Assembly: GCF_041051975.1 (NCBI RefSeq)
Contig: NZ_CP163435.1
Location: forward strand, 5,208,001-5,272,000
Origin: Streptomyces sp. R21
GTDB taxonomy: Bacteria > Actinomycetota > Actinomycetes > Streptomycetales > Streptomycetaceae
Direction: 5' to 3'
Length of the DNA stretch: 64,000 bases
Numbering within the stretch: the stretch's first letter is position 1; every line of letters starts with the position of its first letter. The position numbers and the translations under genes are program-made. The notes under the pieces were generated by a model, which was given only the letters and a program-made list of their open reading frames with translations, ran no database searches and was not told the DNA's origin. Below are positions 17,074 to 33,155 of the stretch, piece by piece.

Positions 17074-17119
17074 CCGGTTAGTCTTGTCCCCGCGCCGCCC
17101 ACACTCGTGGGCAGCGCGG

Positions 17120-17207
17120 GGTGGGTTGCCCGAGCGGCCTAAGGGAACGGTCTTGAAAAACGTGAGGACGCGAGAGCGTCTCCGTGGGTTCGGATCGCGC
17201 CGACTCC
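17120..17207 (+). pseudogene. tRNA-Ser(TGA) remnant = attL of AICE-1
   Basis: The first 40 nt are identical to the intact tRNA-Ser at 33060. A variable arm with a perfect GACGC/GCGTC hairpin and a T-loop (GTGGGTTCGGATC) follow, but the 3' sides of the T-stem and acceptor stem no longer pair. The gene cannot fold as a tRNA. Most simply the 5' half is chromosomal and the decayed 3' half came with the element. Confidence 0.8.
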
Positions 17208-17229
17208 GCAGGTCATAGACATGCTGGTC

Positions 17230-19094: not shown

Positions 19095-20483
19095 CTACTC
19101 ACATTCTTCCAGTGCGCGCTGGATCTGCTCATTCGCCCACTGCTGATTGCGGTGGATCGCCTTGGCATAGAAGCGGAAGAGAACCGCGATGCTGTGGCCA
19201 GCCCGGCGCGCGACTTCGGCTGGGGAGACGCCGGACTCAAGCCAGAGCGAGACGCCCGCGTGTCGCAGGGAGTACGGCACGTCAGCCAGCGGCGAGACTG
19301 CCTCGGGCTCCGTGAGCACTGCGAGCCGGGCAGCCTTCCAAGCCTCCCCGTACTCCTTGGATAGCAGACCGCCGCCCTGGGCCGCGCGGAACAGTCGGCC
19401 GTCTTCAGCTGTACCGAACTCCTTGATGTGCTCGCGGACTAGGCGCACGAGGACGGGGGGAATCGGTACAGGCCGAGTCGCTTTGCGGGCCCGCTTCTTC
19501 AGGCCGCGCGTATCGAACGACTTGCCCGTGTCGGTCCACCCGGATCCGACGCGGGGCGTGCTCGTCGACAGCAGCACGTCTCCCCAGCCCTCTTCGGGCA
19601 AGGTGAAGTCTTCTTCCCGGAGATTGGCTGCCTCCCCAGGGCGGTTGGCCGCGTAGTAGAGGCAGCCGAAGAACGCCATCAGGTGCCGTCCGCGTGCCCC
19701 CTGGTCGCCCACAGCGTCGATCAGTGCCTTCGCCAGCTTCGGACCGGGTACGAACCGGAAGTCGATCTCGTCGTCAGTCTCGGGCGGGGTCCAGTCGACC
19801 TTGTCGAGGGGCAGTGCCGTCAGCAACTTCCGTTCGACCGCGTACCGGAGACAGTTACTGAAGACCGTCCGCTTGCGGTTCACCGTGTTCTCGGCAGCGG
19901 CCGTGCCGTCCTGCTTCAGCTTCAGCGCGTCGAGGGCGGTCCGCACCATGGAGGGCGTGTTGAGGTTGGCGATGTCCACCGACTTGCGGCCGATCCAGTC
20001 CAGCGCGGCCACGATCTCGGCGGGGGGTTCTTCGACGTCGAGTCGGGGCTTCAGTGACCCGTTGTCGTCCAGGACGAACCTGTAGACCCAGGAGTAGAGC
20101 GCGATCCGAAGCACTTTCGGGGCCGGAACTCCGCGCTGGTCCTTGACCAGCTTCGGGGTGATGGTCGCCAGCGCGTCGGCGATGCTCGCGCGGTGCTTGG
20201 CCGAGGCACCCGGCCACTTCATCTCGGCGTATGCGCGCGTGTGGGCATACCAGGTGGAGGAGTTGAGGGCCTGTACCTCGGAGGCGGGCAGACCGGTCTC
20301 CGTGTCGAACTGCTCACGGTTGCGCAGGGCGGCCAGTAACTCGGCGCGACGCCCGTCGGCCTGGGCCTTGATCTTGTAGCTTTTTGAGAAGGGACGCGGA
20401 CCAACGCGCCACCGGAGTTGATAGGCCGTCGCACGGTTGGGTCGCTTGCGGATGCCCCAGATCTGGACGTCGTAGGTCAGCAT
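19095..20483 (-). CDS. int: Tyrosine site-specific integrase of AICE-1
   Basis: 462 residues. An N-terminal arm-binding/core-binding part is followed by the catalytic domain with all expected residues: Arg in AANRPGEAANLREEDF, the LRH box near residues 406-408 (PYSLRHAGVS), His430 (RRAGHS) and the nucleophile Tyr439 (RFYAKAI). It recombines the element with the tRNA-Ser attachment site. The start MLTYDVQIW overlaps the end of xis. In-frame sequence further upstream is only the shadow of xis. It is the last gene of the rep-xis-int operon and reads towards attL. Confidence 0.92.
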   Translation of the reverse strand: MLTYDVQIWGIRKRPNRATAYQLRWRVGPRPFSKSYKIKAQADGRRAELLAALRNREQFDTETGLPASEVQALNSSTWYAHTRAYAEMKWPGASAKHRASIADALATITPKLVKDQRGVPAPKVLRIALYSWVYRFVLDDNGSLKPRLDVEEPPAEIVAALDWIGRKSVDIANLNTPSMVRTALDALKLKQDGTAAAENTVNRKRTVFSNCLRYAVERKLLTALPLDKVDWTPPETDDEIDFRFVPGPKLAKALIDAVGDQGARGRHLMAFFGCLYYAANRPGEAANLREEDFTLPEEGWGDVLLSTSTPRVGSGWTDTGKSFDTRGLKKRARKATRPVPIPPVLVRLVREHIKEFGTAEDGRLFRAAQGGGLLSKEYGEAWKAARLAVLTEPEAVSPLADVPYSLRHAGVSLWLESGVSPAEVARRAGHSIAVLFRFYAKAIHRNQQWANEQIQRALEECE

Positions 20484-20683
20484 GCTTCCTGCACCTCGCA
20501 GCCGTCGAACCAGGCGTCGAGGTCGGCCCGGCGGATGCGTATCTGGCCGTTGGGGAGCTTCAGATGTTTGGGGGCCTGGCCGCGAGCACGCATTCGGTAG
20601 AAGGCGGCACGAGAGACCCGGATCTCGGCGAGGGCTTCGACCAGCGTCAGCGTTCGCTTGTCGGCGGTGGTCGGAGTGGTCAC
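20477..20683 (-). CDS. xis: Excisionase (HTH_17 / MerR-like), AICE-1
   Basis: 68 residues with a winged helix-turn-helix typical of AICE Xis: TLTLVEALAEIRVSRAAFYRMRARGQAP, then the wing RIRRADLDAWFDG. It overlaps repSA by four bases upstream and int by seven downstream, so the three are co-translated. It is needed with Int for excision. Confidence 0.88.
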   Translation of the reverse strand: MTTPTTADKRTLTLVEALAEIRVSRAAFYRMRARGQAPKHLKLPNGQIRIRRADLDAWFDGCEVQEAC

Positions 20684-22143
20684 AGCCAGGGTGCTCCTTC
20701 GGACTTGAGGAGTTCGGAGTGAGTTCTGTCGTGGCGGACCTGGGCGGCAAGGAGTTCTTCACCGGGGCGGTAGCCGCTACTGAGGTAGGTCCACAAGGAG
20801 GAGGTGACGAGGGTGGTGTTCTCGTCGTCTACGGGGAAGCCGGCCCGGATGCGGATGGCTTCGGCCTGGGCGAGGCGCCAGGCTCGGCGTACGTCGCGGA
20901 GTGCGCCGAGCGTGGTGGAGTAGGCGCGGGATTTGCTGGAGAAGTGACCGCGGAAGCCGAGCATGTGGGCCCACTTCCAGAGCTTGAGGTGGGCGAACTC
21001 GGGGAGGTGGCCGAGGGCCCATGCGGTGCGGATCATCTGCCGGGCGTGCTGCTGAACGGGGAGACCGGTGAGGGGTTCGGCTTGGCCGCTGCCGTCGCAG
21101 TCGTCGCACAGGTCGCGGAAGCCGTCGGGGCCGCGTACGTAGCCGCGTCCGGTGCAGGGGCGGCATGCGAGGGTGCGGTCCACGGTGCCCGCGCCTTCGG
21201 CGTTCTTGGTGGCGTACTTGGCGACGTATCCGGCGACCTTGGCGTCCGTGAGTTCGCCGTCCCCCATGGCGGAGATCTGATCCACCTTGAACCGGTCGCC
21301 CCACCGGATGACGCGTTCGCCGACTGCGTCGGACTCGACGGTGAGCCGGGCACGGTTGACCGCCAGGCCGACGGCAGCGTGGAGGGCGTCGAAGGTGGCC
21401 CAGGCCGGGGGTGAGGTGGTGTGGCCGTCGGGCCCGTCGAAGCGAACGACCGCGTGAAAGTGGACCAGGCCTCGTTGCTGGTACTCGGCGACTTTGGCGA
21501 AGGAGACGCGGAGGGCCGCGCTGAGCGCCTTCTGCGTCATGCCGAGGTGCTCGGCGAGGGCGCGGCGCAGGTAGGTGGTGAAGCGTGCCCACAGGGCCCC
21601 GGCATGAGCGTTCCACAGCACGGCGCCGCTGTAGTCGTAGCTTGCCGGGCGCAGCGGGGTGCCGAGTTCGGGTGCGTCCGGTGCGTGGCTTTCGCCGCAC
21701 GCGCAGGGGCGGGGCTTGCCCGCGTCGGTCGTGGGGCGGTTGTGGACAGGGCCGAAGGACGGGGCGGTCAAGGTGACGAAGGCGCGCGGGTGGTCGCGGA
21801 CGGTTTCGGCGACGTTTTTGCCGCCGGACAGTCCGGCCTTGATCAAGTGGTAGGTGTCGGCGGCGTAGAGGCGGGAGCAGGCGGGGCAGCGGGAGGCGCG
21901 GCGGTTGCCGCAGGTGGTGAGGAGGCGTCCGGACGGCTCGTCTTCGGAGCGGTAGGAGCGGACCACTTGCTTGGTGGTCTGGTCGGTGGTGATCGTCCAG
22001 CCGTGCAGGTTGATGGGGCTGGTGCAGCCCCGCAGGTTGCGGACCTGTTCGGTGACTCGGTCGAAGTTGTCGGTGTTGGCCAGTTCGACCAGGTCCCGCA
22101 GGCCGGGGCTGATGATGTGGCGCAGGTCGAGGGGGCGGCGCAT
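20680..22143 (-). CDS. repSA: RepSA-type rolling-circle replication initiator
   Basis: 487 residues. The HUH-type rolling-circle motifs are visible: motif 1 FVTLTAPS (122-129), motif 2 with the metal-binding HFH (228-230) and motif 3 YVAKY (306-310) with the nicking tyrosine. Two Cys pairs (CPAC near 86-89; CRPC...CDDC near 325-345) suggest zinc sites, common in pSAM2-like Rep. It nicks the double-strand origin to start replication of the excised circle. It heads a tight operon with xis and int. GGAAAGGA precedes the ATG at slightly long spacing. Confidence 0.9.
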   Translation of the reverse strand: MRRPLDLRHIISPGLRDLVELANTDNFDRVTEQVRNLRGCTSPINLHGWTITTDQTTKQVVRSYRSEDEPSGRLLTTCGNRRASRCPACSRLYAADTYHLIKAGLSGGKNVAETVRDHPRAFVTLTAPSFGPVHNRPTTDAGKPRPCACGESHAPDAPELGTPLRPASYDYSGAVLWNAHAGALWARFTTYLRRALAEHLGMTQKALSAALRVSFAKVAEYQQRGLVHFHAVVRFDGPDGHTTSPPAWATFDALHAAVGLAVNRARLTVESDAVGERVIRWGDRFKVDQISAMGDGELTDAKVAGYVAKYATKNAEGAGTVDRTLACRPCTGRGYVRGPDGFRDLCDDCDGSGQAEPLTGLPVQQHARQMIRTAWALGHLPEFAHLKLWKWAHMLGFRGHFSSKSRAYSTTLGALRDVRRAWRLAQAEAIRIRAGFPVDDENTTLVTSSLWTYLSSGYRPGEELLAAQVRHDRTHSELLKSEGAPWL

Positions 22144-26601: not shown

Positions 26602-27444
26602 TCAGAGGCAGCTCAGGGCCTTACCCACCTCGTAGATCGTCGGTCGATCTTCGGGAGCATGGCTGAGCATCGCGTCGATCAACTCGCCCAGCTCGCCGGG
26701 CGCCTTCACGCGGCGACGCTTGCCGTTCGCCACGGCCTCTCTCTGTACGGGGCGCGGTGCGTCGTCCGGGTACTCGACCGCCCGCCAGCCGGTGGCGGAG
26801 ATGAGCAGCGAGGCGCCGAGGGCGTAGATGTCGGCTTCCTGGGTCGGCTCGGCTTCCCCGGTGGCGAGCACGGTGCGGGCGATCTCTGGTGCCTCGTAGT
26901 GGACGAGGCAGCCGCGGAAGGGGAAGTCGTATCTCTCGGGCACGTGTCCGCCCTCGGCTAGGGCGAGGTCGATGAGGTGGGTTCGTTCCGGCCCGATGAT
27001 GAAGTGGGCCGGTTGTACGTCACCGTGGGCCCAGCCCTTGGCGTGGAGTTCGGCCAGGGCTTCGACGCATCCCAGGGCCACGCTGGTGTGCGGGGCGATG
27101 GACGAGTCCGGGCTACGGCAGGGTTCCCACAGCCGGTACAGGTCCGGGCCCTCGTGCCACGGTTGGAGGTTCCACGTTCCGCGCTCCCACTCGCCGTACG
27201 CGATGTCATCGAGACCGAGACGGTGCAGGATGGCCCCTTCGCGTGCGGGCGCGAGCGCGGTCCAGGGCTGGGCGGGCCAGTCGGCCGTTTCCTCGATCGG
27301 GTGGCCGAGCTTCACGGCGTAGTGGCCCCGGTGGCTTTCGACTTCCCAGACCGTGGAGCCCCGACGGTTGATGACCAGGTGCTGAGCCGTGGGCATGAGC
27401 GCGTCGAGCACCACGATGGGCAGTTCAGGGGTTGAGCCGGACAA
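26602..27444 (-). CDS. Degenerate serine/threonine protein kinase-like protein
   Basis: 280 residues with a recognisable kinase fold. The VAIK lysine is probably Lys45 (HYAVKLGH). The catalytic loop is HGDVQPAHFII (140-150) in place of HRDLKPxN, keeping the aspartate but losing the asparagine. The DFG motif is DLA (159-161). The APE motif (185-187) and DIYALG (205-210) are intact. Activity is therefore uncertain; it may bind ATP or a partner. The start is a TTG with AAGGAG nine bases upstream. It is the promoter-distal member of a leftward set with the genes at 27521, 28116 and 28214. Confidence 0.75.
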   Translation of the reverse strand: MSGSTPELPIVVLDALMPTAQHLVINRRGSTVWEVESHRGHYAVKLGHPIEETADWPAQPWTALAPAREGAILHRLGLDDIAYGEWERGTWNLQPWHEGPDLYRLWEPCRSPDSSIAPHTSVALGCVEALAELHAKGWAHGDVQPAHFIIGPERTHLIDLALAEGGHVPERYDFPFRGCLVHYEAPEIARTVLATGEAEPTQEADIYALGASLLISATGWRAVEYPDDAPRPVQREAVANGKRRRVKAPGELGELIDAMLSHAPEDRPTIYEVGKALSCL

Positions 27445-30823: not shown

Positions 30824-31156
30824 TTAAGCCAGCGCATTTGCCACTGCTGCGGCGACTCCCAAGAAAAGGATGGCGCCTAGTGACATCAGTAGAGTCCCTT
30901 GGGCCATCATGCGCTGTGACGTCGGGTATTTATCTCCACCGATAGCGACCTTGAAGGAATTCTTCAGAAGCCACAGGAGAGCTGACGAGTTGTCCTCAGC
31001 TTCGGGCTTGGGAACGGCTCGATCCTTCAGTGCTCCTACAAGGAACAATGTCATGCCCGCGAGGAATACGACGAAGATGATGAAGCTGGCAACCGATGTG
31101 AGGATGATCCAGAGCACGTTCACAAGTGATCTCTTGCCGTGCTTGGAAGGTTTCAA
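30824..31156 (-). CDS. Two-helix membrane protein of the AICE-1 protease cargo operon
   Basis: 110 residues. A basic N-terminus (KPSKHGKRS) is followed by a transmembrane helix (LWIILTSVASFIIFVVFLAGMTLFLVG), a 45-residue loop with acidic and basic residues, and a second helix (GTLLMSLGAILFLGVAAAVANAL). The assumed start is a TTG; GTG codons slightly downstream are alternatives. No family is recognised. It lies about 100 bp downstream of the stand-alone prodomain gene on the same strand and may place the module at the membrane. Confidence 0.6.
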   Translation of the reverse strand: MKPSKHGKRSLVNVLWIILTSVASFIIFVVFLAGMTLFLVGALKDRAVPKPEAEDNSSALLWLLKNSFKVAIGGDKYPTSQRMMAQGTLLMSLGAILFLGVAAAVANALA

Positions 31157-31259
31157 GCGCGAGAGGTCTTTCTTCCCTCGCTTGGAGGCTGAATCATTGA
31201 TTCACCCGCGAGGGCCGCTCCTCGTTTCGCTGACCATCGAGCTGTCAGGGGCTTACAGG

Positions 31260-31478
31260 TCAGGCCTCCGCCACGGCTCGGCCAGTTACGATCTGTCGCA
31301 CGGGGACGCCCTGAATCTCCCGCTCGATTTGCGGGGGGTGCTCTGTATTGACCAGGTGAACCCGCACTACGAACTGGGTACCCTCCATGCCGATACCGAC
31401 CCCGCTCACACGCTGATCTTGCTCGAAGCGTCGGTAGAGGGCGTCTCGTACCGCCTCGACGATGTCAAGATCAACCAT
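31260..31478 (-). CDS. Free-standing prodomain-like protein paired with the trypsin-like protease
   Basis: 72 residues. The pattern GVGIG (26-30), FVVRVHLV (36-43) and the C-terminal GRAVAEA (66-72) matches the region before the catalytic domain of the neighbouring protease (GLGI 53-56, LSIHVHV 67-73, GRAVAQA 99-105). Even the N-termini agree (VDLD against VDLE). The small protein stops exactly where the prodomain stops. Proteins like this could inhibit or chaperone the protease in trans; this is inference. The gene starts 18 bp after the protease stop. Confidence 0.68.
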   Translation of the reverse strand: MVDLDIVEAVRDALYRRFEQDQRVSGVGIGMEGTQFVVRVHLVNTEHPPQIEREIQGVPVRQIVTGRAVAEA

Positions 31479-31496
31479 GATGCCTCGCTTCGGTTG

Positions 31497-32516
31497 TCAG
31501 GAGATGAGCGTTACGCGCAGCTTCTTCAGTATTGGTTCCAGCGGGGCTACGTATGAGACCGGGATGCCGCGCGTCTCGTCGAGCTCAGTTCCGCCGATGT
31601 GGAGCCCCACCGGTTCGCGGGAGTCTGGGCGAAACACTAGCGCCCCGCTGTCTCCACCTCTACTGAATCGCTGGCCGACTTTACCGGCTACGACCATAAG
31701 ATCATCGAATCTTAGGTAACCCTCACCTTGGTACCACAGTTTGGTGCTGAATCCGATGTCAATGACCGTTCCCGTCGTGCGGTCCGTGGTAGAGCCTACT
31801 TTGGACACTTGGGAACCGATCACCGCCACCGGGGGCGGGATCGATGCCGAGAGCCCCCCGAGTTCGCCCAAGTCAAACGAAACGTCTCCGTCTAGTAGGC
31901 AGAGTGCAGCATCCATTGTGTTTGGCGTCACTCCGTCTCTGTGAAGCTCCTCCTTCTCGTCCAAGGCCCCGATACGACTTCTTGGCGCTCTGCCTCCCTG
32001 GTGGGGGCCGGGTTGCAGAATGTCGTCTCCCCGTATACCCCGGTCGCACGCGGCCAAGACATGGTTGTTCGACAGAAACCGGATCCCGTCGCTGTGGCGA
32101 CTGCTTGCGACGAAGGCACCTAGAGTGCCGTAGGTCACCTTTTCATGGCCCACAGAGAGTCCAGGCCTGAGCGGCAGGGTCGGAGCAGCGCCAGCGGTGG
32201 TTGCTTGAGCCACCGCTCGACCTACGTAGAGGATCCGTGCCTCGCCCTCAGCCTCCTCTTTCAGGTAGTGCGCAGTCTCCCAGGCTTCCGGCGTGTCTAC
32301 GTGTACGTGGATTGACAGTGCGTACTGAAGGTGGCCGGCCATGGAGGTGATTCCGAGACCCAGCTCCTCCAATGCTGATATCGGCATCGGAGGCCCTTCG
32401 TCGGAGGGTCCGGCGCACTGCGCCATGGCCTGGATTTTTCTGAGACTCCTGTCCTCAACGGTCACGAGGGAGTCGAGGAGTTTGAGATGAAGCGACATCG
32501 CTGATTCAAGGTCCAC
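31497..32516 (-). CDS. Trypsin-like (S1/Nal1-like) serine protease, AICE-1 cargo
   Basis: 339 residues. After a helical N-terminus (1-50) and an alpha/beta prodomain (51-105) comes a trypsin fold with His152 (FLSNNHVLA), Asp202 (NTMDAALCLL) and Ser290 (RGGDSGALVF). There is no signal peptide or membrane helix, so it acts in the cytoplasm, unlike most trypsin-like proteases. The GTG at 32516 is preceded by GGGAGGA at five bases; in-frame sequence upstream of it has no coding character. Codon use is less GC-biased than the element backbone. It heads an operon with the prodomain-like and membrane proteins. Confidence 0.75.
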   Translation of the reverse strand: MDLESAMSLHLKLLDSLVTVEDRSLRKIQAMAQCAGPSDEGPPMPISALEELGLGITSMAGHLQYALSIHVHVDTPEAWETAHYLKEEAEGEARILYVGRAVAQATTAGAAPTLPLRPGLSVGHEKVTYGTLGAFVASSRHSDGIRFLSNNHVLAACDRGIRGDDILQPGPHQGGRAPRSRIGALDEKEELHRDGVTPNTMDAALCLLDGDVSFDLGELGGLSASIPPPVAVIGSQVSKVGSTTDRTTGTVIDIGFSTKLWYQGEGYLRFDDLMVVAGKVGQRFSRGGDSGALVFRPDSREPVGLHIGGTELDETRGIPVSYVAPLEPILKKLRVTLIS

Positions 32517-33059: not shown

Positions 33060-33146
33060 GGTGGGTTGCCCGAGCGGCCTAAGGGAACGGTCTTGAAAAC
33101 CGTCGTCGCAGCGATGTGACCGTGGGTTCAAATCCCACACCCACCG
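33060..33146 (+). tRNA. tRNA-Ser(TGA), reconstituted at attR of AICE-1
   Basis: Acceptor strands GGTGGGT (33060-33066) and ACCCACC (33139-33145) pair fully; the discriminator is G. The anticodon loop CTTGAAA holds TGA at 33094-33096, so it reads UCA codons. A long variable arm confirms a serine tRNA. Its first 40 nt are the attachment repeat, so the 5' half and promoter come from the element and the 3' half from the chromosome. Confidence 0.93.
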
Positions 33147-33155
33147 CACTGATGG

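What the first reader, a model, noticed from the sequence alone, without database searches (positions are those of the whole stretch)
30824..32516. Cargo operon: cytoplasmic trypsin-like protease, its free prodomain copy and a two-helix membrane protein
The 72-residue protein reproduces the prodomain of the neighbouring protease (GxGI, xVHV, GRAVAxA) and stops exactly where the prodomain ends. The protease has an intact His-Asp-Ser triad but no secretion signal, and a membrane protein follows. A trans-acting prodomain could hold the protease inactive until a trigger, a layout reminiscent of defence or toxin-inhibitor modules on mobile elements. I know of no described system with this composition.
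Basis: partly seen in the sequence, partly recalled or inferred. Interest (0 to 1): 0.75.

Follow-up and report, generated by a model that had tools for sequence, protein, structure and literature searches.

The report
Protease paired with free prodomain protein
A cell-interior cutting enzyme related to the rice leaf-shape protease NAL1 sits beside a tiny gene encoding a stand-alone copy of its front domain, and this two-gene pairing recurs across at least 14 bacterial phyla, which suggests a widespread, apparently undescribed way of controlling such proteases with a separate part.

Summary
The protease (31497-32516, -) is a Nal1-family enzyme: Pfam Nal1_C, fold closest to rice NAL1 (Z 25), then alpha-lytic protease (Z 22). 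The 72-residue protein (31260-31478, -) is a free-standing NAL1_N-type domain. A free copy lies beside 57 of 80 genomic Nal1-like proteases from at least 14 phyla, with no hit elsewhere in 1.96 Mb of fetched loci. In two genomes the free domain is fused to the protease C-terminus, in a third to its N-terminus. Free copies form their own family (70 of 73 are nearer other free copies than their neighbour's domain): an old partner, not a recent duplicate. Its predicted fold best matches pro regions of alpha-lytic protease, a natural foldase and inhibitor, and NAL1. I favour a trans-acting pro-domain that binds and holds the protease. The defence link is not supported. The membrane protein is unconserved and probably not part. 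The module is cargo of a pSAM2-type element here, but this is not general. Stand-alone propeptide inhibitors are known for subtilases and cathepsins; I found none described for this class. Binding and inhibition are untested.

The parts
31497..32516 (-). Nal1-family trypsin-like serine protease (P0001, 339 aa), degenerate N-terminal NAL1_N-type domain (about residues 46-105) plus alpha-lytic-protease-like catalytic domain (114-339), triad H152-D202-S290
   Evidence: Pfam Nal1_C 3.1e-10, 40.1 bits against cut-off 26.1; PDB NAL1 by sequence 3.3e-9; AF2 model pLDDT 84, pTM 0.81; VIA Z 25.0 to NAL1 over 297 residues, Z 22 to the alpha-lytic / S. griseus protease group
31260..31478 (-). free-standing NAL1_N-type (pro-domain-like) protein (P0002, 72 aa)
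   Evidence: Matches the family of free copies found beside Nal1-like proteases (E 1.2e-13); AF2 pLDDT 91 with one helix and three strands; fold hits to alpha-lytic protease pro region and NAL1
30824..31156 (-). two-helix membrane protein (P0003, 110 aa, TTG start), probably an unrelated downstream gene
   Evidence: No relative in 119 related genomes; no conserved third gene next to other pairs
33060..33099 (+). right attachment repeat (40 bp) in the tRNA-Ser gene 33060-33147; right end of the integrated element that carries the module
   Evidence: Exact 40-bp direct repeat with 17120-17159
17120..17159 (+). left attachment repeat of the same element
   Evidence: Exact 40-bp direct repeat; RepSA (pSAM2 replication initiator, 1.8e-147) at 20680-22143 inside the element

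Best explanation
A two-gene regulatory module: a cytoplasmic Nal1-family serine protease and a dedicated, separately encoded pro-domain. Shown here by comparison and modelling: the small protein is a free NAL1_N-type domain; free copies form their own old family, inherited together with the protease and sometimes fused to it; the protease fold is of the alpha-lytic protease type, and the free domain's predicted fold resembles the C-terminal part of the alpha-lytic pro region. Inferred: the free domain docks on the protease as that pro region does, extending the sheet formed by the conserved C-terminal hairpin and placing its short, fixed-length C-terminal tail (G-x-I-x-A-Q/L) near the active site. 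It would thereby keep the protease latent (and may help it fold) until displaced or degraded. Trigger and substrate are unknown.
For: Adjacency: 57 of 80 genomic Nal1-like loci have a free copy, 48 just downstream and 8 upstream on the same strand, 1 convergent, with no non-adjacent hit over 12 bits in 1.96 Mb. At least 14 bacterial phyla. Without pre-selecting proteases, roughly two thirds of free-type ORFs in 296 genomes lie next to one. Fusions: free-type domain at the protease C-terminus in L145 and L154 and at the N-terminus in L174, with two NAL1_N stretches by Pfam in L145 and L154. Free and catalytic-domain distances correlate, r 0.67, 0 of 2000 permutations. Distinct family: 70 of 73 free copies nearer another free copy than the neighbour's domain; TDV/TDI in 60 of 63 rows of the protease alignment against mostly PV-x-V in free copies, and 43 of 51 free tails end 6-8 residues from the invariant Gly. 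Fold: top VIA rows 3pro_D Z 6.0, 4pro_C 5.9, NAL1 8hau_A 5.7, 2pro_C 5.5; 4hlb, titled alpha-lytic protease prodomain-like, 4.5. Protease: NAL1 Z 25, alpha-lytic group Z about 22, HtrA about 15. The hairpin that in alpha-lytic protease forms a five-stranded sheet with Pro (PMC2829044) lies in the region conserved in the sequence alignment.
Against: No binding, inhibition or folding datum exists. The fold match of the free domain to Pro is Z about 6, a level that common arrangements can reach; Foldseek gave nothing under E 0.001, and no Pfam match to the alpha-lytic prodomain family appears. Most paired proteases also keep a cis domain, which could already do the job. 20 of 80 genomic loci have neither a free copy nor a fusion, and nearly all proteases in viral contigs lack one, so the partner is dispensable in places. 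In about 12 proteobacterial pairs the free ORF can be read with a hydrophobic, signal-like start that the protease lacks. Some NAL1_N domains occur away from any protease.
Confidence: 0.5

Rival explanations
1. Adaptor or assembly subunit: the free NAL1_N domain binds the protease but acts as a substrate-recognition or ring-assembly subunit, not as an inhibitor.
For: The same co-inheritance, fusions and conserved partner signature fit. NAL1 entries in the PDB with six chains and open/closed titles suggest an oligomeric, switchable enzyme. NAL1_N domains also occur fused to unrelated proteins (L215, L227), as a binding module would.
Against: Does not by itself predict the likeness to the alpha-lytic pro region or the fixed, short C-terminal tail.
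Confidence: 0.25
2. Foldase only: the free domain is a trans chaperone needed to fold the protease, with inhibition incidental.
For: The alpha-lytic pro region speeds folding of its protease by many orders of magnitude (PMC2829044), and the catalytic domain is of that lineage.
Against: Many Nal1-like proteases lack the free copy (20 of 80 genomic loci have neither copy nor fusion, and nearly all in viral contigs lack it) and presumably fold with their cis domain alone.
Confidence: 0.12
3. Mobile defence or toxin-inhibitor module: protease released on phage infection, small protein as antidote, membrane protein as sensor.
For: Cargo position next to the attachment site of an AICE; the protease gene has a low third-position GC for the region (0.65).
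Against: No PADLOC hit; pairs recur in genomes of many phyla without a common third gene; the membrane protein is not conserved.
Confidence: 0.08
4. Chance neighbours: two unrelated small genes with a coincidental motif.
For: Pairwise likeness in this window alone is only modest (8 of 5000 shuffles).
Against: Family-level profile match E 1.7e-20 and recurrent adjacency.
Confidence: 0.02

Closest known systems
Rice NARROW LEAF 1 (NAL1) protease family, Pfam Nal1_C PF25819 and NAL1_N PF25608
   Same: Protease fold and domain order (Z 25, 297 residues); Nal1_C above cut-off
   Different: In NAL1 the N-terminal domain is part of the protease chain; here a second, separate copy is encoded next to it. 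I found no report of such a partner.
alpha-lytic protease and its pro region (Pfam PF02983; PDB 2pro, 3pro, 4pro)
   Same: Catalytic domain of the same structural group (Z about 22; sequence profile reaches it); free-domain fold resembles the C-terminal part of the pro region (Z 5.5-6.0)
   Different: That pro region is the covalent front part of a secreted precursor and is cut off; here it is its own gene and the protease has no signal peptide. No sequence match to PF02983.
Stand-alone propeptide-like inhibitors: subtilase type I9 (SUB1-ProM, TgMIC5, P. ostreatus and yeast inhibitors; PMC6993865) and cathepsin type I29 (CTLA-2alpha, crammer; PMC4089206)
   Same: Same idea: a separately encoded mimic of a protease's own pro-domain; SUB1-ProM is even encoded next to subtilase genes
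   Different: Other protease clans and other folds, described there in eukaryotes; inhibition is shown there and not here.
DESPIG_01740 of Desulfovibrio piger, PDB 4hlb, 'alpha-lytic protease prodomain-like protein'
   Same: A small prodomain-like protein crystallised on its own; appears among the fold matches (Z 4.5)
   Different: Its gene neighbourhood and any relation to Nal1-like proteases were not examined; no sequence match to the free-domain profile.

Membership tests
Nal1-like serine protease family | Nal1_C domain above the curated cut-off | tested here: met
   40.1 bits against 26.1
Nal1-like serine protease family | Intact His-Asp-Ser triad | tested here: met
   H152, D202, S290 in conserved columns
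Nal1-like serine protease family | N-terminal NAL1_N domain in the protease | tested here: inconclusive
   No Pfam NAL1_N hit for P0001; profile comparison E 6.7e-4 for its sub-family; model aligns to NAL1 from residue 8
Nal1-like serine protease family | Oligomeric assembly as in rice NAL1 | not testable with these tools
   No complex prediction available
Free-standing NAL1_N domain proteins | Pfam NAL1_N match | tested here: inconclusive
   14 of 51 free copies match, P0002 itself does not; P0002 matches the profile of free copies at 1.2e-13, but it is a row of that profile
Free-standing NAL1_N domain proteins | Gene next to a Nal1-like protease | tested here: met
   18 bases downstream; 57 of 80 genomic loci have an adjacent free copy
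alpha-lytic protease prodomain (PF02983) | Sequence match to the Pfam family | tested here: not met
   No hit for P0002 up to E 10 nor for any of 51 free copies at E 0.01
alpha-lytic protease prodomain (PF02983) | Fold of the C-terminal part of the pro region | tested here: inconclusive
   Best VIA rows, Z 5.5-6.0, rmsd 3.1-3.5 over 64-68 residues; no Foldseek match under E 0.001
Stand-alone propeptide-like inhibitors (I9, I29) | Demonstrated inhibition of the cognate protease | not testable with these tools
   Needs an enzyme assay
Trypsin-co-occurring domains Trypco1/Trypco2 (PMC7159879) | Pfam match to a trypsin-co-occurring domain | tested here: not met
   No Pfam family of any kind for P0002 up to E 10
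Known anti-phage defence systems | Match to a PADLOC model | tested here: not met
   No hit for any of the three proteins up to E 10
pSAM2-type AICE (the element that carries the module) | RepSA initiator and tRNA attachment repeats | tested here: met
   RepSA 1.8e-147; 40-bp repeat in tRNA-Ser
pSAM2-type AICE (the element that carries the module) | Tyrosine integrase | tested here: inconclusive
   ORF 19095-20762 looks like one by eye (R, H-x-x-R and Y motifs) but has no Pfam or NCBIfam match

The most novel reading that the evidence does not exclude
A widespread and apparently undescribed prokaryotic protease-control system: Nal1-family (alpha-lytic-fold) proteases regulated by a separately encoded pro-domain. 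It would be, as far as I know, the first natural trans-encoded pro region for a chymotrypsin-fold protease, present in at least 14 bacterial phyla and seen in one archaeal genome, and would suggest how plant NAL1 may be controlled.
Probability: 0.42. Interest if true: 0.8.

Novelty: new variant of a known kind. Interest (0 to 1): 0.62.

Why it matters
Rice NAL1 affects leaf shape and grain yield, and its maize relative promotes flowering by degrading a corepressor (PMC12915138), yet how enzymes of this family are kept in check is, as far as I found, unknown. If prokaryotes encode a detachable pro-domain for them, regulation of the family becomes directly testable with two small soluble proteins, and the textbook alpha-lytic protease pro region gains a natural in-trans relative. 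Stand-alone propeptide inhibitors would then span a third protease class.

Tried and rejected
Recent duplication of the neighbour's domain: rejected, 70 of 73 free copies are closer to other free copies. Read-through making a protease-plus-domain fusion here: protease stop and small-gene start are in frame, but such in-frame spacing is not enriched among pairs (gap 4 in 5 of 57 genomic loci). Shared export: about 12 proteobacterial free ORFs can be read with a hydrophobic start, but the inner start has the better ribosome site in most, so location stays open. A first single-protein scan of genome contigs found no relative, so an alignment was used. Plasmid and phage records held few or no close relatives. 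The free-domain profile finds no solved structure by sequence, so the pro-region link of the small protein rests on fold alone. Trypco domains, PADLOC and NCBIfam gave nothing for the small protein. Papers: no report found of a stand-alone pro-domain partner for NAL1-like or alpha-lytic-like proteases; the library lacks most subscription journals.

Full report
Observation. The three ORFs are present as stated on the minus strand: protease 32516-31497 (GTG start, GGGAGGA just upstream), 72-aa protein 31478-31260 starting 18 bases after the protease stop, and a 110-aa two-helix protein 31156-30824. The protease keeps His152, Asp202 and Ser290 in columns conserved across 63 relatives and has no signal peptide. 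The small protein's likeness to the neighbour's N-terminus is modest when the two are compared directly (8 of 5000 shuffles reach the score; for the L004 pair 363 of 5000) but clear by profile: hhalign of 51 free copies against 63 proteases gives E 1.7e-20 over the whole domain, and against the window's own sub-family E 6.7e-4.

What the protease is. It carries Pfam Nal1_C (3.1e-10), finds rice NAL1 structures by sequence, and its model (pLDDT 84) matches NAL1 at Z 25 over 297 residues, then the alpha-lytic / S. griseus protease group at Z about 22, well above HtrA at about 15. The family profile also reaches those enzymes by sequence. The aligned stretch (SGRTT... to GDSG) includes the region of the C-terminal hairpin, which in alpha-lytic protease forms a five-stranded sheet with the pro region (PMC2829044). 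In the model the hairpin is strands 245-262 and 266-278. The N-terminal domain of this particular protease is divergent: Pfam NAL1_N does not hit it, the free-domain profile does not detect it, and its model confidence is lower (blocks of 56-76).

What the small protein is. A first hit came from another genome with the same gene order (L004: protease then small gene, free copies 38% identical). A profile of these two, searched through 296 genomes without reference to the protease, found further convincing hits only beside Nal1-like proteases (G321, G196, G198). Seeds from ten such loci were then used on 80 genomic and 80 viral-contig loci. After iteration, 57 of 80 genomic loci had a free copy within 2 kb of the protease (48 downstream and 8 upstream on the same strand, 1 convergent), 3 of 80 viral ones did (two of these look like the protease's own N-terminus in a broken frame), and no hit above 12 bits lay anywhere else in 1.96 Mb. 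The pairs cover at least 14 bacterial phyla and an altiarchaeal genome (L187). In the reverse test, free-type ORFs found by the broad profile in 296 genomes are next to a protease in about two thirds of cases. Pfam of 51 free copies NAL1_N.

Evidence that the two work together. The free-type domain is fused to the protease C-terminus in two Chloroflexota genomes (L145, L154) and to the N-terminus in a third (L174) (two NAL1_N stretches by Pfam in L145 and L154). None of these three has a separate free copy. Distances among free copies and among their proteases' catalytic parts correlate (r 0.67, none of 2000 permutations); this shows co-inheritance, not contact. Free copies are nearer one another than their neighbour's cis domain in 70 of 73 cases. 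The two kinds differ in signature: TDV/TDI before the last strand in 60 of 63 rows of the protease alignment, mostly PV-x-V in free copies; and 43 of 51 free copies stop 6 to 8 residues after the invariant glycine, usually G-x-I-x-A-Q/L. Near-identical loci were not fully removed from the 57 of 80 count, and the 80 were the best-scoring matches, so the proportion is approximate. The tree of the short domain is poorly resolved, so one origin of the free family is not ruled out but not shown.

Mechanism. AlphaFold2 gives the small protein one helix and three strands at pLDDT 91. Its best matches among 996 aligned PDB chains are alpha-lytic protease pro regions (Z 6.0, 5.9, 5.5), NAL1 (5.7) and, at rank 13, a protein titled alpha-lytic protease prodomain-like, 4hlb (4.5). 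These Z values alone would be weak, and Foldseek saw nothing under E 0.001. The weight comes from two separate models, protease and small protein, pointing to the two halves of the same known complex. The pro region catalyses folding of its protease and inhibits the mature enzyme (PMC2829044, PMC2605481). I therefore infer that the free domain binds its protease as a detachable pro-domain, most likely holding it latent, possibly aiding folding. Adaptor or assembly roles are the main rival. Nothing here shows binding or inhibition.

Setting in this window. The module sits at the right end of a 15.9-kb element bounded by a 40-bp repeat in tRNA-Ser (17120-17159 and 33060-33099) with the pSAM2 replication initiator RepSA, so cargo of an AICE is right here. 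It is not a rule for the pair: the host genome has a second Nal1-like protease, with the free copy upstream, outside this window (L002, G000:C1:7693272). The membrane protein has no relative in 119 genomes and no third gene recurs beside the pairs. No PADLOC model matches. The defence reading is therefore unsupported, though not disproved.

Novelty. Stand-alone propeptide mimics that inhibit proteases are known for subtilases, including one encoded next to its targets (SUB1-ProM, PMC6993865), and for cathepsins (PMC4089206). I found no description of one for Nal1-like or alpha-lytic-like proteases, in a library that lacks most subscription journals. I rate it a new variant of a known kind.

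Noticed in passing
L002 / G000:C1:7693272-7694667: The same genome holds a second Nal1-like protease with a free NAL1_N-type gene immediately upstream; this arrangement recurs in other genomes of the genus (L012, L015, L016).
   Followed up: partly
L047-L126 (IMG/VR viral contigs): Nal1-like proteases are common in predicted viral contigs but almost always lack the free partner that most genomic ones have.
   Followed up: partly
L141, L153, L157, L160, L163, L164, L175, L180, L183, L192, L201, L206: In proteobacterial-type pairs the free copy can be read with a recurrent hydrophobic, signal- or lipobox-like N-terminus, although an inner start with a better ribosome site usually exists.
   Followed up: partly
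L215, L227, L228: NAL1_N-type domains fused to other proteins: C-terminal in lipoprotein-like ORFs (L215, L228) and N-terminal in a 675-codon frame (L227), with no protease nearby.
   Followed up: no
window 17118-17209 and 33060-33147: Second, 3'-altered copy of tRNA-Ser (TGA), apparently created by integration; the intact-looking gene is the right one.
   Followed up: partly
window 26602-27444: Protein-kinase-like protein inside the element, weakly resembling the kinase part of class IV lanthionine synthetases.
   Followed up: no
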